The translations under genes were made by a program, and so were the position numbers. 64,000 nucleotides of DNA from NCBI GenBank assembly GCA_017745595.1, contig WMBV01000019.1, positions 60,284 through 124,283 on the forward strand, written 5' to 3'. Positions 1,672 through 63,812 of this stretch are shown piece by piece. Position 1 is the stretch's first letter, and each line of letters starts with the position of its first letter. Under the pieces are notes generated by a model. That model worked only from the letters and a program-made list of their open reading frames with translations, ran no database searches and had not been told where the DNA came from. This stretch comes from Bordetella petrii. Its GTDB lineage: Bacteria > Pseudomonadota > Gammaproteobacteria > Burkholderiales > Burkholderiaceae_B.

Positions 1672-2652
1672 TCAGTTTCCGTCGATGCCGGCCACGTGGA
1701 TGGCGCGTTTCCAGAACGCCGATTCGCTGGCCACGAAACGCTTGAAGTCGTCGGAAGATCCGCCCTGCGGCACGCTGCCGGCGTCGTGCATGGTCTTGCG
1801 CACGGCGGGATCGGCCAGCGCCAGGTTGATCTCGCGGTTCAGCCTGTCGGTCAGCGCTTGCGGCAGATGCGCCGGAGCCATGATGCCGCCCCAGGCCTGG
1901 ACGTCGAAGCCGGCCATGCCGCTTTCTTCCATGGTGGGCACATCCGGCAGCATCTCGGCGCGCTGGGCCGACGTAACGGCCAGGGGCCGTATTTTCCCGT
2001 CGCGGATAAAGGGCAGCGGCGCGGTGACGTTATCGATCATCAAGTTGACCTGGCCTCCGACCAGGTCCATCAGCCCGGGCGCGCTGCCCTTATAGGGCAC
2101 GTGGCGCAGCTGGACTCCGGCGGCCTGGCTGAAGATTTCCATCGCCAGATGCTGCGAACTGGTTTGGCCGGGAGACGCGTAGGTAATCGTGTCCGGCGGC
2201 TGCTGCCGCGCATAGCGGATCAACTCGGCGATGTTGTGCACGGGTAGCGCGTCATTGGCGCTCAGTACCAGGCCGGCGCGGCCGATCAGGGTAATGGGGG
2301 TGAAATCGTTCAGCGGGTCGTAGCCCAGGTTCGGGTTGAAATGCGGGGCAATGGCATGGCTGCTGGATGTCGCGTACAGCAGGGTATAGCCATCCGGACG
2401 CGCGACCGCCGCGGCCTGCGCGGCAATCGCCCCGGAAGCGCCGGGGCGGTTTTCCACGATGACCGGCTGCCCCATCTGCTTCTGCAGCGCAGAGGCCAGC
2501 AACCTTACCGTGGTATCCGACGAACCGCCGGGTGGAAAGCCCACCAGGATCTTCACGGGCCGCACCGGGTAGTCCGGCGCCTGCGCGAAGGCCAGCAAGG
2601 GGGCCGAGATACCGACGGCCAGGGCCGCGATGAAATGTCTGCGTTGTGTCAT
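1672..2652 (-). CDS. Bug-family (TctC) tripartite tricarboxylate-type binding receptor
   Basis: A 326-residue periplasmic solute-binding protein of the Bug family, which captures organic acids or other small metabolites. It has an N-terminal signal peptide (MTQRRHFIAALAVGISAPLLAFAQA) and then the family's first strand, YPVRPVKILVGFPPGGSSDT. VIVENRPGASGAIAAQ and HVPYKGSAPGLMDLVGGQV are further family signatures. The start at 2652 is chosen because it begins the signal peptide. No TctA/TctB membrane genes are adjacent, so this is an orphan receptor. It lies between the FAH-family and dioxygenase genes and probably delivers their substrate. Confidence 0.9.
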   Translation of the reverse strand: MTQRRHFIAALAVGISAPLLAFAQAPDYPVRPVKILVGFPPGGSSDTTVRLLASALQKQMGQPVIVENRPGASGAIAAQAAAVARPDGYTLLYATSSSHAIAPHFNPNLGYDPLNDFTPITLIGRAGLVLSANDALPVHNIAELIRYARQQPPDTITYASPGQTSSQHLAMEIFSQAAGVQLRHVPYKGSAPGLMDLVGGQVNLMIDNVTAPLPFIRDGKIRPLAVTSAQRAEMLPDVPTMEESGMAGFDVQAWGGIMAPAHLPQALTDRLNREINLALADPAVRKTMHDAGSVPQGGSSDDFKRFVASESAFWKRAIHVAGIDGN

Positions 2653-2702
2653 GCTCTCTCCATTTTTTATTCTTACGTCCAAACGCCAGCGCAAGCTTTT
2701 TA

Positions 2703-3581
2703 TTACATAGCCAGCGCTTCCAGCAAAGGGGCCGGCTCGCATACGGCGTTCCAGCGCAGTTCGCGAACGTACTTATCCGATTCGAACGGGGTGGCCCGGT
2801 GCATGGTGCAGCTGTCGTCCCAGCAGATCAGGTCGTGCGGCAGCCATGTGTACGAAAACACGAATTGCGGCTGGGTCGCGTGGCGGGTCAATTCGGCCAA
2901 CAGGTCCTGGCTTTCGTCTTCCGGCATGCCCACGACGCGGCCGGCGTGCGACGACAGGTAGAGCGACTTGCGGCCGCTGCGGGCATGGACGCGAACCAGC
3001 GGCTGAACGACGGGGGGCGCTTTTTCGCGCTCTTCGGCGCTGAATTCCGTGAAGCCGGCGCGCGCGCGCGAGGCAAAGATGCTGTGCTCGACGCGCAGCC
3101 CTTCGAGTTCGCGCTGGCGTTGGGGCGGCAAGGCATCCCATGCGGCGCGCATGTCGGCGTATTCGGTGGCGGGCGGGGCCGGCGGCAGCTGGCGAGCCGA
3201 CAGCACGGTGACCCGGGCCGGCATGGCCATGAAAGACAGGTCGGTATGCCAGAGCTGGTTGGCGTCGCTGAACTTGCGGCGTTCCGAGCCCTGCGCCAGC
3301 AGCCCGCCTTCCTTGGCCAGGTTCGAGACGTCGCCGAAGCGCGCATCGGCCAGGCGGCGCCGCTTGGTGTCCATGACCGACTGGTGTACGCGGCCGAACC
3401 GGCTGGAAAACGCCAGTTGCTGTTCGTCGTTGACCCTTTGGCGCCGGAAACTCAGCAGCGAGTATTGTGCCAGGGCCTGCTCGACGGCTTCGAAGCTGTC
3501 CGCGTCCAGCGGGCGGGTCAGGTCCAGCCCTTCGATTTCGGCGCCGAAGCTGGAGGTGAACGGGATAACGCGAAGGTCCAT
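2703..3581 (-). CDS. TauD/TfdA-family Fe(II)/2-oxoglutarate dioxygenase (copy 1)
   Basis: The 292-residue protein belongs to the TauD/TfdA family, which uses Fe(II), O2 and 2-oxoglutarate to hydroxylate substrates such as taurine or aryloxyacids, often releasing a leaving group. The iron ligands are visible as WHTDLSF (His112, Asp114) and TMHRATPF (His261). Arg274 in RELRWN is the likely 2-oxoglutarate anchor. Start ATG 3581 aligns exactly with the start of the neighbouring copy (3599-4447). The two proteins share motif spacing and long similar stretches, so a tandem duplication is likely. Substrate unknown. Confidence 0.9.
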   Translation of the reverse strand: MDLRVIPFTSSFGAEIEGLDLTRPLDADSFEAVEQALAQYSLLSFRRQRVNDEQQLAFSSRFGRVHQSVMDTKRRRLADARFGDVSNLAKEGGLLAQGSERRKFSDANQLWHTDLSFMAMPARVTVLSARQLPPAPPATEYADMRAAWDALPPQRQRELEGLRVEHSIFASRARAGFTEFSAEEREKAPPVVQPLVRVHARSGRKSLYLSSHAGRVVGMPEDESQDLLAELTRHATQPQFVFSYTWLPHDLICWDDSCTMHRATPFESDKYVRELRWNAVCEPAPLLEALAM

Positions 3582-3598
3582 ATTGATTTCCCTTGGGT

Positions 3599-4447
3599 TC
3601 AGATGCGTTCGACGACCGCGTTCCAGCGCAGCTCCCGGCGCTGATTGAGCGAGTCGAACGGGACGGCGCGGTGCATGGTGCTGGTGTCGTCCCACATCAG
3701 GACGTCGAACGGATTCCATTGGTAGGCGAAGACGAACTGGGGCTGCGTGGCGTGCTCTATCAGCTCCGCCAGCAGCGCCTGCCCCGATTCCACGGGCCAG
3801 CCGACGATGTGCGACGCGTGCGAGGCCAGGTACAGGGATTTGCGGCGGCTGCGCGGGTGGGTCCGAACCAGGGGCTGGGTCACGGGCGGCAGCGCCTTGC
3901 GTTCGGCATCGGTGAAGCGGGTGTAGCCGGTCTTGGCCCGCGAGGTGAGAATGCTGTGCTCGATCTGCAAGCCTTCGAGCTCGCGCTGGCGGCCGGCGGG
4001 CAGCGCGTCCCAGGCGGCGCGCATGTCGGCGAACTCGGTGGGCGGCGGTTCCGCGGGCAGCTCGCGGGCCGACAGCACGGTAATGCGCGCCGATGCGCGC
4101 ACAAAGGAAAGATCGGTGTGCCACAGCAGGTTGGCGTCGCTGTAGCCGCGTTCTCCGTTGCGGGCGATGTCGCCGTCAAGGTTCAGGTTCGAGACGTCCT
4201 GGAAGTTCGGGTCCTTGATGCGGCGTTGCGCCGGATCGCGGCTGGCCTGGTGCAGGGGGCCGAACCCCGACGAGAACCGGACTTGCTGGGCATCGTCTAT
4301 GCGCTGGCAGCGGATGCCCAGTACGCCGTAGGTGGCCAGGGCGTCTTCCAGGGCTTCGTAGGTATCGCGGGAAAGAGGCTGGCGCAGGTCGATGCCCGTG
4401 ACTTCGGCGGCGAACAGCGGATTGAAAGGACGGACCTGTAGCGTCAT
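3599..4447 (-). CDS. TauD/TfdA-family Fe(II)/2-oxoglutarate dioxygenase (copy 2)
   Basis: A 282-residue second member of the tandem dioxygenase pair. The facial triad is complete: WHTDLSF gives His110 and Asp112, TMHRAVPF gives His259, and the C-terminal RELRWNAV carries the 2-oxoglutarate-binding Arg. Compared with copy 1, the segment around residues 85-105 and the extreme C-terminus differ most, which suggests divergent substrates or a regulatory difference. The start at 4447 matches copy 1 in alignment and has a purine-rich stretch just upstream. It is co-oriented with copy 1 (17-bp gap) and with the Bug gene upstream. The function is inferred only to family level. Confidence 0.9.
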   Translation of the reverse strand: MTLQVRPFNPLFAAEVTGIDLRQPLSRDTYEALEDALATYGVLGIRCQRIDDAQQVRFSSGFGPLHQASRDPAQRRIKDPNFQDVSNLNLDGDIARNGERGYSDANLLWHTDLSFVRASARITVLSARELPAEPPPTEFADMRAAWDALPAGRQRELEGLQIEHSILTSRAKTGYTRFTDAERKALPPVTQPLVRTHPRSRRKSLYLASHASHIVGWPVESGQALLAELIEHATQPQFVFAYQWNPFDVLMWDDTSTMHRAVPFDSLNQRRELRWNAVVERI

Positions 4448-4475
4448 GTGAGTCTCCTGGCAGGGTTGAATCGCT

Positions 4476-5438
4476 TTATTGCCGCGGAATATGCGCGTCG
4501 CGCACCAGCTGCTGCCAATGCCCGATATCGGTCGCCACCAGGTTGGCGAACCGGGCCGGTCCCAGGGGCAGCTCGTCATGGCCGAAAACGGCCAGTTTTT
4601 CCACGGTCTTGGGCTGGGACAGGACCTTGGCCATGGCCGCGTGCAGCGTGTCGACGATGCCGGACGGGGTGCCCGCCGGCGCCATGATTCCTATCCAGGA
4701 CACCAGTTCGTAGCCGGGCAGGTCTTCGGCCATGGCCGGGATGTCCGGAGCCAGTTGCGACCGCCGCGGCGCCGTGATGGCCAGCACTCTCAGCCGCCCC
4801 GAGTTGTGGGCCGTGATCGCCACGCCCAGCGGCAGGAAACAGGCATCCAGGCGCTTGGCCTCGACATCGATCATCGCGGGCTGCAGCGATTTGTAGGGGA
4901 TGTCGTTGACGTCGATGCCGCCCTTGGTTTCCAGCAGCGCCACGCAAGCCCGCGAGCTGGCCGAGCCGTGCGCCACCGTGACCGTGCCCGGCCTTTCCGA
5001 GGCGTAGCGCAGGAATTCCGGAATGTTCTGCGCCGGAAGATCGGTGCGTACCGCCAGCGCCCAGGGCGCGGCGCTGATGGCGCCGACCGGCGTGAAGTCC
5101 TTGACGGGATCGTAGGGCAGCTTCTTGAACAGCGCGACGTTGCCGGCATGCGAGCCGTTCGATACGAAGATAAGGGTGTAGCCGTTGGGCTGCGCGCGCG
5201 CCGCCAATTGCGACCCGATCGAGCCTTCGGCGCCGGGACGGTTCTCGACGATGATGGACTGGCCGACGATCTTGCCCATTTCGTCGGCCATGTACCTGGC
5301 GATGGCATCGGTGGACAGGCCCGGGCCGAACGGAACGATCAGCGTGATGGCCCGTCCCGGGTAGTCGTCATCGGCCGCGGCCAGGGCCGGGGCCAGGCCT
5401 ATCGTGGAAAGGAACAGGCAAAAGCGTCTGCGTTGCAT
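4476..5438 (-). CDS. Bug-family (TctC) binding receptor
   Basis: The 320-residue exported receptor has a signal peptide (MQRRRFCLFLSTIGLAPALAAA) followed by YPGRAITLIVPFGPGLSTDA and SIIVENRPGAEGSIGSQL, both Bug signatures. The usual glycine-rich PGGxxD loop reads GPGLSTD here, a small departure. It is the second Bug gene in this catabolic cluster, directly upstream of dioxygenase copy 2 and downstream of the FMN enzyme. No cognate permease is nearby. The ligand is unknown; a carboxylate handled by the dioxygenases is a reasonable guess. Confidence 0.9.
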   Translation of the reverse strand: MQRRRFCLFLSTIGLAPALAAADDDYPGRAITLIVPFGPGLSTDAIARYMADEMGKIVGQSIIVENRPGAEGSIGSQLAARAQPNGYTLIFVSNGSHAGNVALFKKLPYDPVKDFTPVGAISAAPWALAVRTDLPAQNIPEFLRYASERPGTVTVAHGSASSRACVALLETKGGIDVNDIPYKSLQPAMIDVEAKRLDACFLPLGVAITAHNSGRLRVLAITAPRRSQLAPDIPAMAEDLPGYELVSWIGIMAPAGTPSGIVDTLHAAMAKVLSQPKTVEKLAVFGHDELPLGPARFANLVATDIGHWQQLVRDAHIPRQ

Positions 5439-7775: not shown

Positions 7776-7800
7776 GGTGTCAGGCTCCGCAGGTGCCTGA
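7776..7800. repeat. Truncated copy of the dyad repeat
   Basis: GGTGTCAGGCTCCGCAGGTG continues to CCTGA and then breaks off, lacking the final CACC of the full dyad at 7919-7947. About 25-30 bp, including the preceding CGGAA, are duplicated at both ends of the intervening element 7801-7913. Confidence 0.8.
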
Positions 7801-7913
7801 AGTGAAAGTCCCACCCCCGAAGCGCTGCGCGCTTCCCCCTCAAGGGGGCGACGCTGGCGGCCCGGCAAAGCCGGATCCGCCGCGTCCCCGATCGAGCCGC
7901 ATCTTTCATTCCG
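7801..7913. repeat. Second-type GC-rich intergenic repeat
   Basis: The block contains CGAAGCGCTGCGCGCTTC, an excellent hairpin, followed by CCCCCTCAAGGGGG, another hairpin, then GGCGACGCTGGCGGCCCGGC and a CCGG-rich tail. From memory, this motif family recurs between genes in Burkholderiales genomes. Here it is sandwiched between two copies of the dyad repeat. No coding potential or promoter was identified in it. Confidence 0.5.
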
Positions 7914-7918
7914 CGGAA

Positions 7919-8007
7919 GGTGTCAGGCTCCGCAGGTGCCTGACACCGCTGCGTATAGAGGAATCCGGCTTACTTCGGTGTCTGACACCCTGCGGGAGTC
8001 AGACACC
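7919..8007. repeat. Pair of dyad (hairpin) repeats
   Basis: There are two perfect-stem dyads: 7919-7947 (GGTGTCAGGC / GCCTGACACC) and 7977-8007 (GGTGTCTGAC / GTCAGACACC). They are separated by a 29-bp AT-richer spacer. They follow the LysR gene and precede the riboswitch, where they could end transcription entering from upstream. Confidence 0.9.
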
Positions 8008-8050
8008 TGACAAGCCGTCGCCGAAGTGGGCGGAAGCGGGTTAACATTGC

Positions 8051-8130
8051 CGTTGCTCCGGGGTGCACGCCGTGCTGAGATCCAAACCCGCGAACTTGAC
8101 CCGGTTCATCCCGGCGTAAGAAGAGCATCG
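8051..8130 (+). promoter_or_regulatory. TPP riboswitch aptamer (THI box)
   Basis: The conserved thiamin-pyrophosphate aptamer elements occur in order. GGGGTGC is at 8060-8066 and CTGAGA at 8075-8080. ACCCGCGAACTTGA then CCGGTTCATCCCGGCGTAA follows, running to about 8119, matching the consensus GGGGTGC...CTGAGA...ACCC...GAACCTGAT...GGTTAATACC-GCGTA. The closing P1 stem is visible as TGCTC 8054-8058 pairing with GAGCA 8123-8127. TPP riboswitches shut off thiamin biosynthesis and uptake genes when TPP is plentiful. It lies 76 bp upstream of the LuxE-like gene, so the following operon should be repressed by TPP. Confidence 0.93.
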
Positions 8131-8166
8131 ACCTCGACCCGGGCGCCGCGCGCCGCTGGGGCAGGT

Positions 8167-8205
8167 GGGCTTCGGAGCTTCCATGCTTAGGAATCGCGAA
8201 AGCCC
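8167..8205 (+). promoter_or_regulatory. Candidate expression-platform hairpin covering the ribosome-binding site of the LuxE-like gene
   Basis: GGGCTT at 8167-8172 is perfectly complementary to AAGCCC at 8200-8205, which abuts the ATG at 8206. The loop holds the only Shine-Dalgarno-like stretch (TTAGGAA, about 8187-8193). There is no clear poly-T tract. This suggests translational rather than transcriptional control, but the alternative pairing with the aptamer was not worked out. Confidence 0.45.
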
Positions 8206-9288
8206 ATGAACGACGCCGAACCGCTGATCGCGGATATTCTCCACTTTATCGCCCAAGACGGCTGCACCAACGAGCAATTCGACCGGCTCGCGCTGCGCCT
8301 GTTCGCGTATCAGTACGGCGCCAGCGCCCCGTACCGCGGCTTTTGCCAGCGGCGCGGCGCCACGGTGCGTACCGTGAAAACCTGGAGCGACATACCGGCC
8401 GTGCCCATCGACGCCTTCAAGGCCATGGAACTGCGCTGCCAGCCGCCCCTGCCGACCGAGCGCGTGTTCATGACCAGCGGCACCACGCGCGCCGATACGC
8501 GCGGGCGCCACTTTCATCCGCGCCTGGACGTCTACGACCTGTCCATGACCCGCAATTTCGCGCGCCGTTTCATGGGGGGCGCCGAGCGCCTGCCCATGGG
8601 AATCCTGTTCCCGGACGAAACCGCGATGCCGAACTCGTCGCTGGCGCATTACCTGGCGCTGGCGAAATCCGTCTTCGGCGACCCGGCCAGCCGTTATTTC
8701 ATGTCGCCGCGGGGCATCGACCTCGACGGCTTGTGGCAGCACCTGGAGCAGGCCGAGCGCCGGGGTGAACCCTATGCCTTGCTGGGGGCCAGCTACAGCT
8801 TCGTGCACGTCATCGACGCGCTCCGCGCGGCGGGGCGGTCGTTCCGGCTGCCGCCCGGCAGCCGCATTCTCGATACCGGCGGCTACAAGGGCCAGTCGCG
8901 CGAATTGCCGCTGGACGCCTTTTATGGCGAGCTGTCCGGGCTGCTCGGCGTGCCGCGCGAGCTGTGCGTCAACATGTACGGCATGACCGAACTGAGCACC
9001 CAGTTTTACGATTCGGGCAACGCCATCGTGCCTTCCGCCAAGTCGGGGCCGCACTGGATCCGCTCGCGGCTGGTCGATCCGGCCACGGGCCGCGCGGTGC
9101 CGCCGGGCGAGCGCGGCATCCTGGCGCACTGCGACCTGGCCAATTTCAATTCGGTCAGCACGATCCTGACCGAAGATGTCGGCCAGCCCACCCGCGAGGG
9201 TTTCCTGTTGTTGGGGCGCGCCCAGGGCGCCGAGGCCAAGGGCTGCTCGCTGGCAGTCGAAGAGTTCATCCGGTCTGCCGCGCCATGA
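8206..9288 (+). CDS. LuxE-like acyl-protein synthetase (carboxylate-activating), TPP-riboswitch controlled
   Basis: The 360-residue protein resembles LuxE acyl-protein synthetases, which activate a carboxylic acid with ATP and pass the acyl group to an enzyme cysteine for reduction by LuxC. The adenylation motif MTSGTT is at residues 89-94, with TGGYKG at 224-229 and NMYGMTEL at 257-264. A cysteine near the C-terminus (Cys347 in AKGCSLAVEEF) matches the position of LuxE's acyl-carrying Cys. It is the first gene after the riboswitch and overlaps the LuxC-like gene by ATGA at 9285-9288. There are no luciferase genes, so the acyl substrate is probably not the bioluminescence fatty acid. A thiamin-related carboxylate is inferred from the riboswitch. 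Confidence 0.85.
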   Translation: MNDAEPLIADILHFIAQDGCTNEQFDRLALRLFAYQYGASAPYRGFCQRRGATVRTVKTWSDIPAVPIDAFKAMELRCQPPLPTERVFMTSGTTRADTRGRHFHPRLDVYDLSMTRNFARRFMGGAERLPMGILFPDETAMPNSSLAHYLALAKSVFGDPASRYFMSPRGIDLDGLWQHLEQAERRGEPYALLGASYSFVHVIDALRAAGRSFRLPPGSRILDTGGYKGQSRELPLDAFYGELSGLLGVPRELCVNMYGMTELSTQFYDSGNAIVPSAKSGPHWIRSRLVDPATGRAVPPGERGILAHCDLANFNSVSTILTEDVGQPTREGFLLLGRAQGAEAKGCSLAVEEFIRSAAP

Positions 9289-10763
9289 ACGTGCACAAGG
9301 TCCAGGCGGGCTATTTGCCGGGGCTGGAGCGGGCCCAGGTCCAATGGCACACCCTGGCGTTCGAACAAGACGGCCGGCGGCTCGAGGTCGCCGTGCCGGT
9401 GCTGTCGGCGCCGCAGATGGACGCGCTTGCCGAACGGGTCCGGCGCGCCGCGGCGCGGCACCTGAAGCCCATGCCGGTGTCCGACATCATTGCCGTCATC
9501 GACCGCGTCATGGCCCGGCTGCTCGATCGCGACGACCCTTACCGCCGCGAGGCCGACGCGCTGTTGCCGCTGGTGAGCGGCTACGATGCCGAGATGGTCC
9601 GCCTGGGCCTGACGGGTTTCTTCAAGACGTTCCGCGCGCCGCAGCTGCATCGTTTCGTGGCTCAGGATTTCGCCAACCCCAAGGTGCTCGACGGCTTCCA
9701 GCCGGCGGCCAAGGGCGGCGCGGTGCGTGCGCATGGCCCGCGCCTGCTGGCGCACAGCTGGGCCGGCAATGTGCCGGCGCTGGCCTTGTGGAGCCTGGTC
9801 TGCGGCCTGCTGGTCAAGGCCGGCAATATCGGCAAGCTGCCCAGCGCCGAGCCGCTGTTCGCCGGCTGGTTCGCGCGCCTGCTGGCCGAAGTGCACCCGC
9901 CGCTGGCCGACTGCCTGGCGGTGGTGTGGTGGCGCGGCGCCGGCGACGCGGAGGCCGCGGCGCTATACGCGCAGGCCGATACCGTGGTGGCGTATGGCGG
10001 CAATGATGCGCTGCACGCGATCCAGCGCCGCTTGCCGGTCACGACGCGCTTTCTGGCCTACGGCCACAAGCTGGGGTTCGGCGTGGCCAGCGCCATGGCG
10101 CTCGACGCGCTGAAGGCACCCGCGCTGGCGCGGCGCGCCGCCTGGGATGTCATGCGCTATGACCAGCAAGGCTGTTATTCGCCGCATATCTTTTACGTGC
10201 AGCGCGGCGGCCAGGTGACGCCGCGCGAGTTCGCCGGCTACCTGGCCGGCGAATTGGCCAATCTGCAACGGCGCTATCCGCGCCGGGCGCTGGACCTGCC
10301 GGAGTCGGCGGCGGTCGCGAAATGGCGCCAGTCCATCGAATGGTGGTTGCCCGCGCCCGGAACCGAGGGCGCCGCGGACCACGACCCCTTGATCGGCGAC
10401 CCCGCGGCGGCCTGGAGCGTGGCCTACACCGACGATGCGCAAGCGCTGGCGCCCACGGCCCTGCAACGCAGCATCGTGGTCGCGGGCATCGATGCGCTGG
10501 ACGCGGTCGCGCCGGCGGTGGCCGGCGCCGGGGCGTATCTGCAATCCGCCGGCATCGCCGCCGCGCCGGATGAACTGTACCGCCTGGCCGAACAGCTGGG
10601 CGCGGTGGGCGTCACCCGCGTCAGCGCCATCGGCTCGATGAGCGTGCCCGAGGCCGGCTGGCATCACGATGGCCGCTTCAATCTGCTGGACCTGGTCCGC
10701 ATGACCGAGATCGAACAATCGGCCGAAGCGGCGGCCGAGCCTTTTGCGCCGTACGAGCCATGA
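9285..10763 (+). CDS. LuxC-like acyl-CoA/acyl-enzyme reductase, TPP-riboswitch controlled
   Basis: The 492-residue protein belongs to the LuxC branch of the aldehyde dehydrogenase superfamily, which reduces an acyl thioester to an aldehyde with NAD(P)H. Visible motifs are SWAGNVPAL (158-166, nucleotide loop), KAGNIGKLPSAEPLF (178-192), VVAYGGNDAL (234-243) and YDQQGCYSPH (292-301), with the catalytic Cys297. The start ATG 9285 overlaps the LuxE-like stop, and its own stop overlaps the ATPase start (ATGA 10760-10763). Both overlaps suggest translational coupling. LuxE and LuxC form a fatty-acid reductase complex in luminous bacteria, and an analogous complex is expected here on another acid. 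The tail beyond about residue 400 is less conserved. Confidence 0.85.
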   Translation: MNVHKVQAGYLPGLERAQVQWHTLAFEQDGRRLEVAVPVLSAPQMDALAERVRRAAARHLKPMPVSDIIAVIDRVMARLLDRDDPYRREADALLPLVSGYDAEMVRLGLTGFFKTFRAPQLHRFVAQDFANPKVLDGFQPAAKGGAVRAHGPRLLAHSWAGNVPALALWSLVCGLLVKAGNIGKLPSAEPLFAGWFARLLAEVHPPLADCLAVVWWRGAGDAEAAALYAQADTVVAYGGNDALHAIQRRLPVTTRFLAYGHKLGFGVASAMALDALKAPALARRAAWDVMRYDQQGCYSPHIFYVQRGGQVTPREFAGYLAGELANLQRRYPRRALDLPESAAVAKWRQSIEWWLPAPGTEGAADHDPLIGDPAAAWSVAYTDDAQALAPTALQRSIVVAGIDALDAVAPAVAGAGAYLQSAGIAAAPDELYRLAEQLGAVGVTRVSAIGSMSVPEAGWHHDGRFNLLDLVRMTEIEQSAEAAAEPFAPYEP

Positions 10764-11527
10764 GCCTGGCGCAGGAGGTTCCCTTTCTTGATATGCGGCA
10801 GGTGGCCTACACCTATCCGGGCCGCCCGCCCGTCGTCGACGGCATCGACTGGCGGCTGCGGGCCGGCGGCTTTCATTGCCTGGTGGGCCGCAGCGGCTGC
10901 GGCAAGACGACGCTGCTGAAGCTGGCCGCGGGCCTGCTGGCCCCCCAGTCGGGGCGCATCGTGCGCCCGGACGGCCAGCCGGCCGCGCCCGGACCGCAGC
11001 TGGGCTATGTGTTCCAGGCGCCCACGCTGCTGGAGTGGCGCCGGGTCATCGACAACGTGCTGCTGCCGGTGTCGCTGCAGCGCCGCCCGCTGGCCGCCGA
11101 CCTCGAGCGCGCGCACGCCTTGCTGGACATGCTGGGCTTGTCCGGCCACGCGCGGCATTATCCCCGGCAGTTGTCCGGCGGACAGCAAAGCCGGGTGGCG
11201 CTGGCGCGCGCCCTGATCCTGGAACCGGCGCTGCTGCTGCTGGACGAGCCATTCGCCGCGCTCGACGCCATCACGCGCGGCGAGCTGCAGGACGACCTGC
11301 TGCGCATGTGCCGCCTGCGCAATACCACGGTGCTGTTCGTCACGCACGACATCGGCGAGGCGGTGTACCTGGGCGATCGCGTCGCGGTCATGCACCAGGG
11401 CCGGCTGCTGGCCGATATCCCGGTCGACCTGGCGGCGCCCCGCGCGCAGTCCATGCGCCACGGCCCGGCCTTCAACCAGTACTGCGCCCGGATATTCGAC
11501 GCCATGACAACCGGGGGGCGCCCATGA
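10760..11527 (+). CDS. ABC transporter ATPase (SsuB/TauB/ThiZ-type)
   Basis: The 255-residue ATPase carries Walker A GRSGCGKTT (43-51), signature LSGGQQSR (138-145), Walker B LLLLDEP (158-164) and the H-loop VTHDIGEAV. It belongs to the nitrate/sulfonate/thiamin-precursor import group. The gene overlaps both neighbours (ATGA at 10760-10763 and at 11524-11527), placing it firmly in the TPP-controlled operon. It should drive uptake with the permease at 11524 and the binding protein at 12285. In other bacteria, homologous thiXYZ systems import a formylaminopyrimidine; whether this one does is not known. Confidence 0.92.
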   Translation: MSLAQEVPFLDMRQVAYTYPGRPPVVDGIDWRLRAGGFHCLVGRSGCGKTTLLKLAAGLLAPQSGRIVRPDGQPAAPGPQLGYVFQAPTLLEWRRVIDNVLLPVSLQRRPLAADLERAHALLDMLGLSGHARHYPRQLSGGQQSRVALARALILEPALLLLDEPFAALDAITRGELQDDLLRMCRLRNTTVLFVTHDIGEAVYLGDRVAVMHQGRLLADIPVDLAAPRAQSMRHGPAFNQYCARIFDAMTTGGRP

Positions 11528-12288
11528 AGCCGATGTCGAATCCCCGCGTCCTGGCCGGCGCGCTGCTGGTGCTGCTGGTGGCGGCCTGGGAACTGGTCGT
11601 CAGGCAGGCGGGCATTTCCGCGCTGGTGCTGCCGGCGCCGTCGGCCGTGGCCCGGACCTTGTGGACCGCCTTGTCCACGGGCTATCTGTGGCCGCACATC
11701 GGCGCGACGCTGGCCGAGATGCTGCTGGGGCTGGCCCTGGGCGGGATAGCGGGCCTGGCCATCGGCGTGGCGCTGGCCGAATCGGTTCTGCTCGATCGCG
11801 TGGTCAAGCCCTACGTCATCGTCAGCCAGGTGGTCCCCAAGCTGGCGCTGGCGCCGCTGTTCGTGCTGTGGTTCGGCTTCGGCATGCTGCCCACGGTGGT
11901 GATGACGGCCCTGATCTGCTTCTTTCCGCTGATGGAAAACACGCTGACCAGCCTGCGCCAGGTCGATCCGCACCGGCTGCAGCTGTTCCGCATGCTGGGC
12001 GCCTCGCGCGCGCAGACCTTGTGGCGGCTGAAGCTGCCGGCGGGCCTGCCCGGCATTCTGGCCGGCCTGCGCGTGGCGCTGGTGCTGGCCCTGGTGGGCG
12101 CCGTGGTGGGTGAATTCATCGGCGCCAGCCGCGGGCTGGGCGCCGTCATCATCGCCGCCCAGGGCATGATGGACACGTCCCTGATGTTCGCCGCGCTGGC
12201 CGCCATTGCCGCCATCGGCCTGCTGGGCTACCAGGCCACGCTTATGCTCGAGCGCCGTCTGCTGCGCGCCTACGCCGATCTTTCATGA
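11524..12288 (+). CDS. ABC transporter permease (SsuC/TauC/ThiX-type)
   Basis: This is a 254-residue inner-membrane permease with about six hydrophobic helices, starting at ALLVLLVAAWELVV. The cytoplasmic coupling segment is recognisable at residues 150-175: RMLGASRAQTLWRLKLPAG. The family end pattern GEFIGASRGLGAVIIAAQG is also present. Its start overlaps the ATPase stop and its stop overlaps the first possible start of the binding protein (12285-12288). It forms the membrane channel of the TPP-riboswitch operon's importer. Confidence 0.92.
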   Translation: MKPMSNPRVLAGALLVLLVAAWELVVRQAGISALVLPAPSAVARTLWTALSTGYLWPHIGATLAEMLLGLALGGIAGLAIGVALAESVLLDRVVKPYVIVSQVVPKLALAPLFVLWFGFGMLPTVVMTALICFFPLMENTLTSLRQVDPHRLQLFRMLGASRAQTLWRLKLPAGLPGILAGLRVALVLALVGAVVGEFIGASRGLGAVIIAAQGMMDTSLMFAALAAIAAIGLLGYQATLMLERRLLRAYADLS

Positions 12289-13322
12289 CTACTCATAGAA
12301 CTGACGCCATGTCTTCGTTTTCCACCCGCCGCGCCTTGCTGGGCGCGGCCGCGAGCCTGGCCGCGCTGCCATTCGCGGGGCCTCTGGCCCGCGCGCAGGC
12401 GGCAACCGGCAAGGTTGTCCTGGCCGGCTGGAGCAAGCCGATCTCGGAAATCACCAACCTGCTGGCCGAGCCCGACAAAGGCTTTTTCAAGGCGCAGGGC
12501 GTGGAACTGGTGTATTTGCCGGGCGCCGGCGGCGGCGACGCCATCCGCAACATTCTCAGCGGCCAGGCCGACGTGGCCTTTACCGACCCGGGCTCTTTTT
12601 TCATGGCCCTGGACAAGGGCGAGCCGCTGCGCGCCATCTACGATATTTATCCGCAGAACGTTTTCAATGTGGTGTCGCTCAAGTCGGCCGGCATCGCGCG
12701 GCCGGCGGACCTGAAGGGCAAGCGCATCGGCGTGTACAGCCTGTCCAGCGGCACGCGCCAGAATCTGCTGGTACTGCTGCACCAGGCGGGCCTGACCGAG
12801 GCCGATGTGGAAATCGTGGTCACCGGTGTCTTGAACTTCGCCCCGCTGCTGCAGGGCCAGGTGGACGCCACGGCGGCCACCGATACCGGCCTGCTGGTGG
12901 GCCGCCGGCACGGGCTGGGCGAAGTCGATGTCATGCAGGTGCGCGACTACTTCAATGTTTCCAGCGATCTGTTCGTGGTGCGCGTACCGGTCTATCGGCA
13001 AAAGCAGCCTCTGTTGCGGGCGTTCTTGAAGGCTTACCGCGACAGCGCCGCGTGGATGATCGCCCGGCCCGAAGAAGCCGCCGCGCTGGCCTCTAAGCGT
13101 GCCATCGACGGCACCGACCGGGACATCAATCTGGAAGTGATCCGGTTGCGCAACGCCGCCGCGGTGGCTACCCCCGGCCCGGACGGCGCCGCGCGCGCAT
13201 TGGGCACGTTCAACCTGGATCTTCTGCAGAAGGCGGCCGACGCGTATCGCGAACTGGGCCTGGTCCAGCGCCATATCGACGTGGCGGCGGTGGCCGATGC
13301 CAGCCTGCTGCCGGGAGACTGA
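12285..13322 (+). CDS. NMT1/THI5-like ABC substrate-binding protein, likely Tat-exported
   Basis: The 345-residue protein (337 if started at ATG 12309) belongs to the NMT1/THI5-like periplasmic binding family, which includes pyrimidine-precursor, sulfonate and nitrate receptors. A twin-arginine-like signal is visible (SFSTRRALLGAAASLAALPFAG), ending at ARAQA. The mature part starts KVVLAGWSKPISEITNLLAEPDKGFFKAQGVELVYLPG and has the GGGDAIRNILSGQADVAF pocket loop. The start at 12285 is preferred because it forms the ATGA overlap seen throughout this operon. Its ligand is the key unknown; a thiamin fragment or oxidised thiamin derivative is inferred from the riboswitch. Confidence 0.88.
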   Translation: MTTHRTDAMSSFSTRRALLGAAASLAALPFAGPLARAQAATGKVVLAGWSKPISEITNLLAEPDKGFFKAQGVELVYLPGAGGGDAIRNILSGQADVAFTDPGSFFMALDKGEPLRAIYDIYPQNVFNVVSLKSAGIARPADLKGKRIGVYSLSSGTRQNLLVLLHQAGLTEADVEIVVTGVLNFAPLLQGQVDATAATDTGLLVGRRHGLGEVDVMQVRDYFNVSSDLFVVRVPVYRQKQPLLRAFLKAYRDSAAWMIARPEEAAALASKRAIDGTDRDINLEVIRLRNAAAVATPGPDGAARALGTFNLDLLQKAADAYRELGLVQRHIDVAAVADASLLPGD

Positions 13323-13323
13323 G

Positions 13324-14103
13324 ATGAACACCGCCATGAAATTCGCGGGCAAGGTGGTATTGGTAACCGGTGCCAGCCGCGGCATCGGCGCCGGGATCGC
13401 GCGCGCGTTCGCCCGCGAAGGCGCGACCGTGGTCGTGAATTACTTGCGCAACGCCGCGGCGGCCGAGGCCGTCGTGGCGCAGTGCCAGGCCGCCGGCGGC
13501 GACGCATGGGCCGTATCCGCCGACGTGGGCTCGCCGGACGAAGTCCGTGCCATGGTCGATGCCGTGGCGCAGGAAGCCGGCCGTCTCGATGTCGTGGTCA
13601 ACAACGCCCTGCGGCATTACGCATTCGACCCCCGGCGCCGCGTGGCCTTCGACAACCTGCGCTGGCAGGACTACCAGGGCCAGTTCGATGGCGCGGTCGG
13701 CGCGGCTTTCAACGTATGCCACGCCGCGCTGCCGCATTTCAAGCGGCGCGCCCAGGGCTGCATCGTCAATATCGCCAGCAATCTGGTCGAGCAGCCGGTG
13801 GTGCCGTATCACGACTACACCACCGCCAAGGCCGCGCTGGTGGCGTTCAGCCGCAATCTGGCATCGGAACTGGGGCCGTTCGGCATCCGGGTGAATTGCG
13901 TCGCGCCGGGGTTGGTGTATCCCACCCAGGCCAGCGAAGAAACCCAGGAGTCGTTCCGCGAATCGCTGATCGCCGCCACGCCGCTGCGCCGCATCGCCCG
14001 GCCCGAGGACGTCGCCGGCCCGGTGCTGTTCCTGGCTTCCGACTGGAGCGGATTCATGACCGGGCAGGTGCTTTTCGTGGACGGCGGATTGGTGATGCGT
14101 TGA
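13324..14103 (+). CDS. Short-chain dehydrogenase/reductase (FabG-like), last gene of the TPP-riboswitch operon
   Basis: The 259-residue classical SDR has the cofactor loop TGASRGIG (15-22), an NNA motif at 93-95 (reading NNALRHY instead of NNAG), and the catalytic Ser152, Tyr165 and Lys169 (YTTAK). It ends with FMTGQVLFVDGGLVMR. Members of this group interconvert alcohols and aldehydes or ketones with NAD(P)H. It starts one base after the binding-protein stop, so it is almost certainly co-transcribed. After LuxE/LuxC-type reduction of an acid to an aldehyde, this enzyme could make the alcohol, or it could oxidise an imported alcohol. Annotating it as a fatty-acid FabG would be misleading here. 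Confidence 0.88.
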   Translation: MNTAMKFAGKVVLVTGASRGIGAGIARAFAREGATVVVNYLRNAAAAEAVVAQCQAAGGDAWAVSADVGSPDEVRAMVDAVAQEAGRLDVVVNNALRHYAFDPRRRVAFDNLRWQDYQGQFDGAVGAAFNVCHAALPHFKRRAQGCIVNIASNLVEQPVVPYHDYTTAKAALVAFSRNLASELGPFGIRVNCVAPGLVYPTQASEETQESFRESLIAATPLRRIARPEDVAGPVLFLASDWSGFMTGQVLFVDGGLVMR

Positions 14104-14117
14104 TGGCCAGATTGCCA

Positions 14118-14210
14118 GGTGTCTGACTCCCGTCAGGGTGTCAGACACCGATCGTGTTGAAACGGCCTGTCCTTGCTTCGGTGTCTGACACCCTGCGGGA
14201 GTCAGACACC
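14118..14210. repeat. Head-to-head pair of dyad repeats after the TPP operon
   Basis: Dyads at 14118-14149 and 14180-14210 are inverted copies of one another, each with GGTGTCTGAC/GTCAGACACC stems, separated by 30 bp. The first has one extra T in its loop (CCCGTCAGG). Placed 14 bp after the SDR stop, they probably mark the end of the operon transcript. Confidence 0.9.
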
Positions 14211-23196: not shown

Positions 23197-24249
23197 CTAC
23201 TTGTTTGCCAGGCCCAGCTGCTCGATCATCGGGCCATAGACCGCCAGGTCGTCGGCCAGCATCCGGGCAAACCGGTCGGGCGGGCCTGCGGCCACCTCGA
23301 AACCCTGTTGGGCCGCGGCCTTGCGGGTGGCCTCATCTTGCAGAGCCTGTTCGAACAAGGCATTGAGCCGGCCGATGATGGGCGCGGGCGTGCCGGCCGG
23401 TGCGAAGAATCCCAGCCAGCCGGTAGCCTGGAAGCCTGGCAGGCCGGATTCCGCGAAGGTGGGCAGGTTCGGCAGCATGGCCGAGCGCTGCTTGCCGCCG
23501 CTGGCCAGCGCGCGCACGCGGCCCGATTCGATGAAGGGCAAGGCGGTGGATACGCTGATGAAAAACATATCGACTTCGCCCGTGCTGGTGGCGACGATGC
23601 CCGGATTGCCCCCCTTGTACGGCACGTGCTGAATCTGCAAGCCGCCCGCGTCGCGCTTGAGCACTTCCATGGCCAGGTGCTGCGGCGTGCCATTGCCGGT
23701 AGACGCATAGTCGAACGCATCCGGTTTGCCGCGCACCAGTTCGATCATCTCGCTCACGGTTTGCGCGGGGAATCCGGGCGTGACCAGCAGCACGTTGTCC
23801 AGGGTGGCGCCCAGAATGATGGGCGTCAGGTCGCGGCGCATGTCGAAAGCGGAGTTCGGATACAGAAGCGGCTGATAGGCGATCGACGACTGGTCGATCA
23901 GCAGCGTGTAGCCGTCGGGCGCGGCATTGGCCACCGCCGCGCCCGCCACCAGGCCCGCGGCGCCGGGCTTGTTTTCCACGATCACCGGTTGCCCGGCCTG
24001 CTTGGCCAGCGATTCCCCCACCAGGCGCGCGAAGGCGTCAGTGCCGCCGCCCGCGGCGTACGGCACGATCAGGCGGATCGGCTTGGACGGAAAGGCGCTG
24101 GCGTCGGCCGCCTGGGCGGGGCCGGCGGCGCACGCCAGCGCGCCGAGTGCCACGGCCAGCATGCGGCGGAAGGCTCTGTGGGCCCGGCCGGGCAGCCAGG
24201 CCGGGCGCGTGCGTATCGGCGGCATAGTGCCGGATTGCAGCTGTTTCAT
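23197..24249 (-). CDS. Bug-family (TctC) binding receptor
   Basis: The 350-residue product is a Bug receptor with an unusually long N-region before its signal peptide: an Arg-rich stretch, then MLAVALGALACAAGPAQA. An in-frame ATG about 29 codons in, at the signal peptide itself, may be the true start. Family motifs follow: FPSKPIRLIVPYAAGGGTDAFARLV, PVIVENKPGAAGLVAGAAVA and HVPYKGGNPGIVATSTGEVDMFF. It is the first of three Bug genes in the 23-30 kb catabolic stretch. The ligand is unknown. Confidence 0.88.
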   Translation of the reverse strand: MKQLQSGTMPPIRTRPAWLPGRAHRAFRRMLAVALGALACAAGPAQAADASAFPSKPIRLIVPYAAGGGTDAFARLVGESLAKQAGQPVIVENKPGAAGLVAGAAVANAAPDGYTLLIDQSSIAYQPLLYPNSAFDMRRDLTPIILGATLDNVLLVTPGFPAQTVSEMIELVRGKPDAFDYASTGNGTPQHLAMEVLKRDAGGLQIQHVPYKGGNPGIVATSTGEVDMFFISVSTALPFIESGRVRALASGGKQRSAMLPNLPTFAESGLPGFQATGWLGFFAPAGTPAPIIGRLNALFEQALQDEATRKAAAQQGFEVAAGPPDRFARMLADDLAVYGPMIEQLGLANK

Positions 24250-24321
24250 GATGTCGTCTCCAGGATATTCTTGTTCTTGCCGGCGGCGCCCCGAACACAC
24301 CGTTGCGGGGCGTACGCCGGC

Positions 24322-31024: not shown

Positions 31025-31192
31025 GGTGTCAGGCTCCGCAGGTGCCTGACACCGCTGTGTGCGGAAAGTCTCGGTCAAGCTTCGGTGTCTGACACCCTGC
31101 GGGAGTCAGACACCTGGGCGGGTCCGCTGTGTGCGGAAAGTCTCGGTCAAGCTTCGGTGTCTGACACCCTGTGGGAGTCAGACACCTGGGCG
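31025..31192. repeat. Triple dyad repeat with a 72-bp tandem duplication
   Basis: Three dyads are at 31025-31053, 31084-31114 and 31156-31186. A unit starting at 31052 (CCGCTGTGTGCGG...) is repeated at 31124 with a 72-bp offset. The two copies agree over about 69 bases, with one change (CTGCGGG to CTGTGGG) in the loop. The repeats fill the gap between the dehydrogenase and the convergent phosphoesterase. Confidence 0.92.
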
Positions 31193-40375: not shown

Positions 40376-40466
40376 GGTGTCTGACTCCCGCAGGGTGTCA
40401 GACACCGAGGTATAGAAACGGTGTGGCCACACATCGGTGTCTGACACCCTGCGGGAGTCAGACACC
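40376..40466. repeat. Head-to-head pair of dyad repeats upstream of the enoyl-CoA hydratase
   Basis: Perfect dyads at 40376-40406 and 40436-40466 are in opposite orientations, 29 bp apart, with the same loops as at 14118-14210. They lie between the MaoC-type gene (stop 40480) and the hydratase start 40356, splitting the module into two transcriptional parts if they act as terminators. Confidence 0.9.
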
Positions 40467-51173: not shown

Positions 51174-51644
51174 ATGCACATCTGGGTAGACGCGGACGCC
51201 TGTCCCGCCGTGGTCAAAGACATCTTGTACCGCGCGGCGCAGCGCTGGCAGCGGCCGCTGACCCTGGTGGCCAACCAGATGCTGCGCACGCCGCCCTCGG
51301 CCTGGGTGCGCGCGGTACAGGTGCCGCGCGGATTCGACCTGGCCGATGCCTATATCGTCGAGCACGCCGCGGCGGGCGACCTGGTGATCACCGGCGATAT
51401 TCCGCTGGCCGCCCAGGTGCTCGACAAGCAGGCGCTGGTGCTCAGCCCGCGCGGCGAACGCTACACCGCCGATACCATCCGCGAACGCCTGTCGATGCGC
51501 GACATGATGGAAGAACTGCGCAGCGCCGGCATCGACACCGGCGGCCCCGCGGCCTTCAGCCAGGCCGACCGGCGGGCTTTCGCCAATGCGCTGGACCGGC
51601 TGATGCTGGCCAGGGCGCGCGACGGTGGTCTTTCAGGTGTCTGA
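51174..51644 (+). CDS. YaiI/YqxD (UPF0178) family protein
   Basis: The 156-residue protein has the conserved opening [25 protein letters not shown], an Asp-rich PIN-like pattern ([25 protein letters not shown]), and NALDRLM at the end. The family is conserved in bacteria and is of unknown function, possibly a PIN-domain nuclease relative. The start is ATG 51174, with AAGG upstream; ATG 51135 is an alternative. Its stop codon TGA lies inside the following dyad repeat (51636-51666), so the last residues (SGV) are repeat-encoded. Confidence 0.88.
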
Positions 51645-51727
51645 CTCCCGCAGGGTGTCAGACACCTGAAAGACCCTCAGGCTGTCTGCTCACAGCGGTG
51701 TCAGGCACCCTGGCGGGAGCCTGACAC
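51636..51727. repeat. Pair of dyad repeats, the first overlapping the YaiI-family stop codon
   Basis: Dyads at 51636-51666 (GGTGTCTGAC/GTCAGACACC) and 51697-51727 (GGTGTCAGGC/GCCTGACACC). The TGA in the left arm of the first serves as the stop codon of the upstream gene. The pair lies between convergent genes (YaiI family and the ABC permease), and can act as a bidirectional terminator. Confidence 0.9.
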
Positions 51728-51762
51728 CTGGCCGCGCGATCCCGCGCGGCTTCGCCGCACAC

Positions 51763-63794: not shown

Positions 63795-63812
63795 GGTGTC
63801 TGACTCCCGCAG
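63795..63812. repeat. Dyad repeat interrupted by an IS110-family element
   Basis: GGTGTCTGACTCCCGCAG is the first part of the standard 31-bp dyad. The expected continuation GGTGTCAGACACC is replaced by CAACTGTGTTTGG, the presumed edge of an insertion element. The other half of the dyad is expected at the far side of the element, beyond the window. Confidence 0.85.

What the first reader, a model, noticed from the sequence alone, without database searches (positions are those of the whole stretch)
8051..14103. TPP-riboswitch-controlled LuxE-LuxC reductase plus ABC importer and dehydrogenase: candidate new thiamin salvage system
A clear THI-box aptamer (8051-8130) precedes a fully coupled operon: LuxE-like and LuxC-like proteins, three importer subunits and an SDR. 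Four ATGA overlaps (9285, 10760, 11524, 12285) and a 1-bp gap link all six genes. TPP riboswitches govern thiamin acquisition, and the binding protein belongs to the NMT1/THI5 fold that includes thiamin-precursor receptors. LuxE/LuxC chemistry is ATP-dependent activation of a carboxylic acid and its reduction to an aldehyde; an SDR could finish the reduction to an alcohol. I infer an import-and-reduce route that turns a carboxylate derivative of thiamin or its pyrimidine or thiazole part back into the usable alcohol. Candidates are thiamin acetic acid, the pyrimidine-5-carboxylate, or thiazole acetate. I know of no described pathway using LuxEC for thiamin.
Basis: partly seen in the sequence, partly recalled or inferred. 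Interest (0 to 1): 0.96.

Follow-up and report, generated by a model that had tools for sequence, protein, structure and literature searches.

The report
Vitamin B1 salvage by acid reduction
An RNA element of the vitamin-B1-sensing kind sits in front of a six-gene unit, found in several groups of bacteria, that is predicted to take up an oxidised, acid form of the pyrimidine half of vitamin B1 and reduce it back to the usable alcohol, which would be a previously unrecognised way of recycling damaged vitamin B1.

Summary
In detail: an Rfam TPP aptamer (58.2 bits) precedes six coupled genes, LuxE-LuxC-ATPase-permease-NMT1/THI5 binding protein-SDR. A riboswitch fronts the unit in 78 of 78 testable named loci, 26 of 27 further close orthologs (three are repeats) and 8 of 8 plasmid loci, but 0 of 7 distant LuxC loci. 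In 15 Ramlibacter-type loci thiD (HMP kinase) heads the unit, and thiE follows, directly or after other thi genes, in the 11 long enough to show it. Of eight such genomes checked, seven lack ThiC and six of those keep ThiG. Of 48 carriers, ThiM exceeds its cut-off in 5 and thiamin pyrophosphokinase in none. Lactobacilli and Niallia swap the importer for a nucleobase-family permease; Niallia adds ThiW. The binding-protein model is closest to ThiY; the LuxE and LuxC cysteines are invariant in the rows aligned. Best reading: TPP-repressed import and reduction of 4-amino-2-methylpyrimidine-5-carboxylate to HMP. Against: nothing is biochemical, ThiC loss is not enriched in carriers (5 of 20 versus 66 of 200), and the window's genome keeps ThiC. 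Searches of the held library found no description.

The parts
8049..8139 (+). TPP riboswitch aptamer (THI element)
   Evidence: Rfam RF00059, 58.2 bits, GA 54.3; covariation over 28 orthologous leaders
8206..9288 (+). LuxE-like acid-activating, thioester-forming protein; TSGTT at 90-94, Cys347 in KGCSL
   Evidence: PF04443 63.9 bits; 7xc6_E match with aligned Cys; Cys invariant in alignments A3 (15 rows) and A6 (7 rows)
9285..10763 (+). LuxC-like acyl-thioester reductase; Cys297 in YDQQGC
   Evidence: PF05893 270.8 bits; 7xc6_A match; Cys invariant in alignments A2 (14 rows) and A7 (7 rows)
10760..11527 (+). ABC importer ATPase
   Evidence: PF00005 101.6 bits; Walker A and LSGGQ motifs
11524..12288 (+). 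ABC importer permease (SsuC/TauC-like)
   Evidence: PF00528 108.2 bits; closest NCBIfam models SaoP/TauC/SsuC, all below cut-off
12285..13322 (+). NMT1/THI5-type substrate-binding protein, structurally closest to ThiY
13324..14103 (+). SDR-family oxidoreductase (TGASRGIG, YTTAK), predicted aldehyde-to-alcohol step
   Evidence: PF13561 204.9 bits; motifs

Best explanation
This operon lies behind a TPP riboswitch and is predicted to salvage the pyrimidine half of thiamin from its carboxylic acid: the ABC importer likely brings in 4-amino-2-methylpyrimidine-5-carboxylate, LuxE would activate it with ATP and load it as a thioester, LuxC would reduce it with NADPH to the aldehyde, and the SDR would reduce that to HMP. 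HMP would then enter thiamin synthesis through ThiD and ThiE. Shown by sequence: the riboswitch, the gene order and its conservation, the conserved cysteines, and the joining of the unit with thiD and thiE in some lineages. Inferred: that TPP turns the operon down, that the product is HMP, and that the substrate is the 5-carboxylate. In several ThiC-less bacteria the route would be the TPP-controlled source of HMP. In the window's own organism, which has ThiC, it would be a facultative salvage route.
For: Riboswitch link: Rfam TPP upstream in 50 of 50 carrier genomes scanned, 27 of 50 above gathering; model R1 in 78 of 78 loci with upstream sequence, in 26 of 27 further close orthologs and 0 of 7 distant LuxC loci (three of the 27 repeat contigs of the first set), and in 8 of 8 plasmid loci including Bacillota (7 of 8 above Rfam gathering). 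Product HMP: thiD is the first gene of the unit in 15 of 115 sequences, and thiE, directly or after thiO/thiS/thiG, follows the SDR in 11 of the 15, the other four being cut by the contig end; in 8 of 8 such genomes examined that thiD is the only one above cut-off. L146, elsewhere in the tree, has the unit followed by thiO, thiS (by appearance), thiG and thiE in a 100% complete genome without a ThiC match. Of 48 chosen carriers (two of them, G133 and G180, look like one genome) 12 lack ThiC, 8 of those 12 keep ThiG, and all 48 have ThiD. In ThiC-less G186, G188, G189 and G182 the only two TPP sites found are this operon and one within 4 kb upstream of thiG. Not thiazole: ThiM above cut-off in 5 of 48; Niallia has ThiW in the same unit. 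Not thiamin: TPK 0 of 48. Pyrimidine-like cargo: an NCS2 nucleobase-family permease replaces the ABC importer in L152, L153 (same protein accessions, so one case) and L154; binding-protein model closest to ThiY 3ix1. Chemistry: LuxE Cys347 and LuxC Cys297 invariant in the rows aligned; LuxE model nearest to PaaK, which binds phenylacetyl adenylate. The acid is a reported thiamin metabolite: title of Neal and Pearson 1964, seen in the reference list of PMC7780320.
Confidence: 0.74

Rival explanations
1. The unit salvages thiamin acetic acid: LuxE/LuxC and the SDR reduce the oxidised side chain of intact thiamin back to thiamin, which is then phosphorylated.
For: Thiamine acetic acid is a reported thiamin metabolite (title of Amos and Neal 1970 in the reference list of PMC7575681). 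A thiamin-bound binding protein, 4nmy, is the second-best structural match.
Against: No thiamin pyrophosphokinase in 48 of 48 carriers (the control genomes ring in 6 of 14); ThiK was not searched. It does not explain the location between thiD and thiE, the ThiC-less carriers that keep ThiG, or the nucleobase-family permease and ThiW in Bacillota.
Confidence: 0.08
2. The unit salvages thiazole acetate: 4-methylthiazole-5-acetate is reduced to hydroxyethylthiazole.
For: The chemistry fits equally well (acid to alcohol), and a TPP riboswitch fits.
Against: ThiM, the known kinase for the product, is above cut-off in only 5 of 48 carriers. Eight of the 12 ThiC-less carriers keep ThiG, so they lack pyrimidine rather than thiazole. 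ThiW, a different thiamin-precursor carrier, is co-encoded in Niallia.
Confidence: 0.04
3. The acid is made inside the cell, so that LuxE-LuxC-SDR is part of a ThiC-independent de novo route to HMP, the importer being an optional add-on.
For: LuxE-LuxC-SDR without the ABC genes, still behind a TPP riboswitch, occurs in L065, L073, L078, L097 and the two Pantoea plasmids fetched. Three of these (L065, L073, L078) lie in assemblies without a ThiC match.
Against: Most carriers encode an importer in the unit, and the lactobacilli and Niallia plasmids substitute another permease. A rough neighbour scan showed no obvious further gene that could make the acid, but it is a weak negative. Unlinked transporters were not searched for.
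Confidence: 0.07
4. The LuxE/LuxC pair acts on fatty or other acids unrelated to thiamin, and the TPP riboswitch is incidental.
For: Pfam families shared with the luminescence enzymes; databases name the LuxE-like protein long-chain fatty acid--CoA ligase or acyl-CoA synthetase and the LuxC-like one acyl-CoA reductase.
Against: The luminescence equivalog cut-offs are missed widely (61.1 against 550 and 70.6 against 750). No luxA, luxB or luxD is in the unit. Riboswitch and thi-gene linkage recur in several lineages.
Confidence: 0.03

Closest known systems
FAMP salvage (ThiXYZ importer with ThiY, YlmB deformylase, TenA, ThiD)
   Same: Import of an oxidised or degraded thiamin pyrimidine by an NMT1/THI5-fold ABC receptor, then conversion to HMP for ThiD and ThiE (recalled; YlmB and TenA steps in passages of PMC10470507). 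FAMP under its chemical name and the acid proposed here both appear in reference titles as thiamin metabolites of the rat.
   Different: No amidohydrolase or TenA in the unit. The predicted chemistry is ATP-driven reduction of a carboxylic acid, not deformylation and deamination. Passages of two papers list HMP, AmMP and FAMP as pyrimidine vitamers and show no pyrimidine carboxylate.
LuxCDE fatty acid reductase of luminous bacteria
   Same: LuxE and LuxC families with both thioester-forming cysteines, neighbouring genes, acid to aldehyde.
   Different: Far below the luminescence equivalog cut-offs; no LuxD in the unit, as expected if a free acid is imported; extra SDR; TPP riboswitch; thi neighbours.
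ThiC (HMP-phosphate synthase)
   Same: Would supply the same pyrimidine to ThiD and ThiE; the unit lies inside thi operons of several ThiC-less genomes.
   Different: De novo radical-SAM synthesis (recalled) versus predicted salvage; most carriers checked (36 of 48) have both.
Single-chain carboxylic acid reductases (CAR)
   Same: ATP- and NADPH-dependent reduction of a free acid to an aldehyde (recalled).
   Different: CAR is one large protein with a phosphopantetheine arm (recalled); here two separate LuxE/LuxC-family proteins.

Membership tests
TPP riboswitch (RF00059) | Covariance-model score above the curated gathering score | tested here: met
   58.2 against 54.3 bits
TPP riboswitch (RF00059) | Binds TPP and changes expression | not testable with these tools
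   Needs in-line probing or a reporter assay
LuxE family (PF04443) | Profile match and acyl-carrying cysteine | tested here: met
   63.9 bits, cut-off 24.9; Cys347 aligned to the KGCSL site of 7xc6_E and invariant in A3 and A6
Luminescence fatty-acid LuxE (NF052244) | Equivalog cut-off | tested here: not met
   61.1 against 550 bits
LuxC family (PF05893) | Profile match and catalytic cysteine | tested here: met
   270.8 bits, cut-off 21; Cys297 invariant in A2 and A7
Luminescence LuxC (NF052251) | Equivalog cut-off | tested here: not met
   70.6 against 750 bits
ThiY-type pyrimidine receptor | NMT1/THI5 fold closest to ThiY | tested here: met
ThiY-type pyrimidine receptor | Binds a thiamin pyrimidine | not testable with these tools
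   Needs a binding assay
FAMP salvage pathway | YlmB-type amidohydrolase and TenA in the unit | tested here: not met
   Neither is among the six genes; occurrence elsewhere in the genome was not searched
Thiamin acquisition system | Conserved TPP riboswitch and, in some lineages, operon membership with thi genes | tested here: met

The most novel reading that the evidence does not exclude
Carboxy-HMP (4-amino-2-methylpyrimidine-5-carboxylate) is an unrecognised circulating form of vitamin B1's pyrimidine, and bacteria of Pseudomonadota and Bacillota, sometimes on plasmids, carry a dedicated LuxE-LuxC-SDR reductase that turns it into HMP. In some ThiC-less lineages this reductase has taken ThiC's place as the pyrimidine source of vitamin B1, which would make this a ThiC-independent route to HMP and a non-luminescent job for the Lux acid-reductase machinery.
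Probability: 0.62. Interest if true: 0.92.

Novelty: new variant of a known kind. Interest (0 to 1): 0.87.

Why it matters
If true, it adds a carboxylate to the set of environmental vitamin B1 pyrimidines (HMP, AmMP and FAMP in the passages read) and gives that acid a dedicated import and repair route. Genomes now scored as pyrimidine auxotrophs because they lack ThiC could make vitamin B1 from this acid. It assigns a function to a LuxE/LuxC pair that databases label as fatty-acid-type enzymes, and it is directly testable with one small compound and a laboratory thiC deletion strain.

Tried and rejected
Thiazole acetate and thiamin acetic acid were tested through the enzymes their products would need and are disfavoured. 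ThiC loss as a statistical marker of carriers was tested and failed: 5 of 20 carriers and 66 of 200 others lack it in the sampled family, so I do not use it as enrichment. One weak LuxC match there (G841, 145 bits) was counted among the 200, not the carriers. The 48 carriers were chosen by me for spread and for the thiD-bearing and importer-less types, not drawn at random, and G133 and G180 among them have identical coordinates, so they look like one genome.

A rough scan for conserved neighbours around the window and 80 loci showed, in four or more genera, the operon's own genes, many overlapping or antisense frames, tricarboxylate-type receptors by appearance, and one small cluster that I did not examine (around L062 6878-7735). 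It missed thiD and thiE, which I found by reading the gap between riboswitch and luxE and the stretch behind the SDR, so it is a weak negative. A flavin monooxygenase of the RutA/SfnG type stands divergent from the importer-less unit in L073 and L078 and was not matched in the other loci compared; I took it as a lead, not a part. Unguided folding of the leader gave no aptamer-like or unusually stable structure. A structure comparison of binding-site residues with ThiY was not possible because the paper is not held.

Paper searches for a link between LuxE/LuxC and thiamin or THI boxes returned nothing relevant in their listings (one search listed 10 of 11 hits and one search listed 20 of 131). 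Of PMC3766115, PMC10470507, PMC10881298, PMC7780320 and PMC7575681 only passages were read. Supplementary gene lists, RegPrecise and most subscription journals were not searched.
Full report
What is there. The window holds one Rfam match at gathering, a TPP aptamer at 8049-8139 (58.2 bits, gathering 54.3). It is followed by six genes read in the same direction with four ATGA overlaps and a one-base gap: LuxE, LuxC, ABC ATPase, ABC permease, NMT1/THI5 binding protein and SDR. The window's genome (100% complete by the tool's estimate) has one other TPP match, 43.5 bits, in front of thiC. The closest named relative of its LuxC is from Bordetella sp. BOR01, 87% identical.

Conservation. A LuxC profile search of named genomes found 249 encoded relatives, of which the best 80 were kept. 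The gene order LuxE-LuxC-ATPase-permease-binding protein-SDR recurs in Bordetella, Achromobacter, Acidovorax, Comamonas, Variovorax, Ramlibacter, Polaromonas, Thauera, Castellaniella and Azospirillum, among others. Exactly that order is seen in 79 of 115 sequences compared (the window, those 80 and 34 more); the rest are extended by thi genes, cut by contig ends, lack some or all importer genes, or are distant LuxC loci. In whole-genome samples close orthologs occur in 6 of 397 genomes of the phylum and 13 of 101 of the window's family, the window's own genome counted in both, and in 20 of 220 of a second family.

Riboswitch linkage. Rfam TPP matches lie in front of the unit in 50 of 50 carrier genomes scanned, 27 of 50 above the gathering score and the other 23 at 48.6 to 54.1 bits. 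A model built from 28 of the leaders finds one in 78 of 80 loci, the other two (L011, L070) being cut inside the operon, and in 26 of 27 further close orthologs, the exception being L110, the most divergent of those 27. Seven distant LuxC loci (25 to 32% identity) have none, and in a tree of 56 LuxC proteins those seven are one side of a supported branch (95/96). In the 28 leaders, 8 of 12 predicted pairs show changes on both sides that keep the pair.

What the product is. In 15 loci, mostly labelled Ramlibacter, the first gene behind the riboswitch is thiD, the HMP/HMP-phosphate kinase (three tested, 309 to 318 bits against a cut-off of 205; in L070 the gene is cut). In 11 of these thiE follows the SDR, directly in nine and after thiO/thiS/thiG or thiS/thiG in two; the other four end earlier, one of them after thiO and thiS. 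Pfam checks were made on L053, L057, L058, L060, L064 and L081; the remaining assignments rest on tblastn. ThiO of L053 is below its NCBIfam cut-off (208 against 251). In 8 of 8 such genomes examined this thiD is the only ThiD above cut-off. The five thiD-first loci put in the tree are one clade. Elsewhere in the tree, L146 carries the unit followed by thiO, thiS (by appearance), thiG and thiE behind a TPP riboswitch of 60.4 bits in a 100% complete genome with no ThiC match. The unit therefore sits where HMP enters the pathway.

Need. Of 48 chosen carriers, ThiD is present in 48, ThiG in 44, ThiC in 36, ThiM above cut-off in 5 (a sixth below it), and thiamin pyrophosphokinase in none. Eight of the 12 ThiC-less carriers keep ThiG: six isolates (G182, G186, G187, G188, G189, G199) and two metagenome assemblies (G191, G673). 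In four of them (G186, G188, G189, G182) the only two TPP sites found are this operon and one within 4 kb upstream of thiG (one search used strict filters), so this operon is the one TPP-linked candidate for supplying pyrimidine. Against over-reading: in a sample of 220 genomes of one family, 5 of 20 carriers and 66 of 200 others lack ThiC, so ThiC loss as such is not associated with the operon.

Importer swaps. LuxE-LuxC-SDR without the ABC genes but with the riboswitch occurs in L065, L073, L078 and L097, which fall in two places of the tree, and on the two Pantoea plasmids fetched. Of 27 plasmid records with a LuxC match I fetched eight. Priestia megaterium (Bacillota) has the full six-gene unit (riboswitch by R1 only, 42.1 bits). 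Plasmids of Lactiplantibacillus plantarum and Levilactobacillus brevis, which share the same protein accessions, have TPP riboswitch, NCS2/SLC23 nucleobase-family permease, LuxE, LuxC and SDR. Niallia taxi has two tandem TPP riboswitches, ThiW, the same kind of permease, LuxE, LuxC and SDR. A nucleobase-family permease in the importer's place points to a nucleobase-like heterocycle, and ThiW, a different thiamin-precursor carrier (from recalled work, the thiazole one), would cover the other half.

Why the 5-carboxylate. The product would be an alcohol that ThiD accepts, which is HMP; undoing the SDR and LuxC/LuxE steps gives 4-amino-2-methylpyrimidine-5-carboxylate. That acid is a reported thiamin metabolite in rat urine (title of Neal and Pearson 1964 in the reference list of PMC7780320). 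FAMP, for which bacteria have a dedicated salvage route, was likewise reported from the rat (title of Amos and Neal 1970, under its chemical name, in PMC7575681). Passages of two papers on marine vitamin B1 list HMP, AmMP and FAMP as the pyrimidine vitamers; the carboxylic acid they name is a thiazole, cHET.

Standing. The conserved TPP riboswitch and thi-operon membership are shown by sequence. HMP as the product is a strong inference, the exact acid a good one, and importer specificity, TPP response and enzyme activity are untested. I rate it a new variant of a known kind, vitamin-precursor salvage behind a TPP riboswitch, with chemistry and enzymes not described for this purpose in anything the searches of the held library listed.

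Noticed in passing
window 7776-8007, 14118-14210, 31025-31186, 40376-40466, 51636-51728, 63795-63807: Clusters of a short interspersed palindromic repeat (GGTGTCTGACACC and variants): 46 matches with up to 2 mismatches, both strands counted, against 1.14 expected. Two clusters flank the operon on either side.
   Followed up: partly
L073 7473-8576 (-) and L078 2066-3262 (-): A luciferase-like flavin monooxygenase of the SfnG/RutA kind stands divergent from the importer-less LuxE-LuxC-SDR unit. RutA opens pyrimidine rings (recalled), so a link to pyrimidine processing is conceivable.
   Followed up: partly
L154 5540-5836: Two tandem TPP riboswitches (85.0 and 72.9 bits) in front of ThiW, an NCS2 permease and LuxE-LuxC-SDR on a Niallia taxi megaplasmid.
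   Followed up: yes
L106 and L107: The ATPase gene is missing between LuxC and the permease while the other five genes remain, so the importer may borrow an ATPase encoded elsewhere.
   Followed up: no
L089-L096, L100-L102, L111-L114, L132: Distant LuxC homologs, most of them in open frames of 811 to 935 residues and two in shorter ones, possibly longer or fused reductases of another function; seven of these places were searched for a riboswitch and have none.
   Followed up: no
L155 6946-10215: The copy on a Pseudomonas silvicola megaplasmid matches in several pieces per gene and has no annotated genes there: a broken copy or sequencing errors, behind a TPP match of 63.8 bits.
   Followed up: no
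L028: A record titled Pantoea sp. 18069 carries a LuxC 72% identical to the window's in a full six-gene operon, unlike the importer-less units on the Pantoea plasmids fetched; the label may be wrong.
   Followed up: no
window 1672-5438 and 23197-24300: Several tripartite-tricarboxylate-type (Bug-like) receptor genes by sequence appearance; similar proteins recur near the operon in 21 loci under 8 genus labels, perhaps because they are numerous in these genomes.
   Followed up: partly
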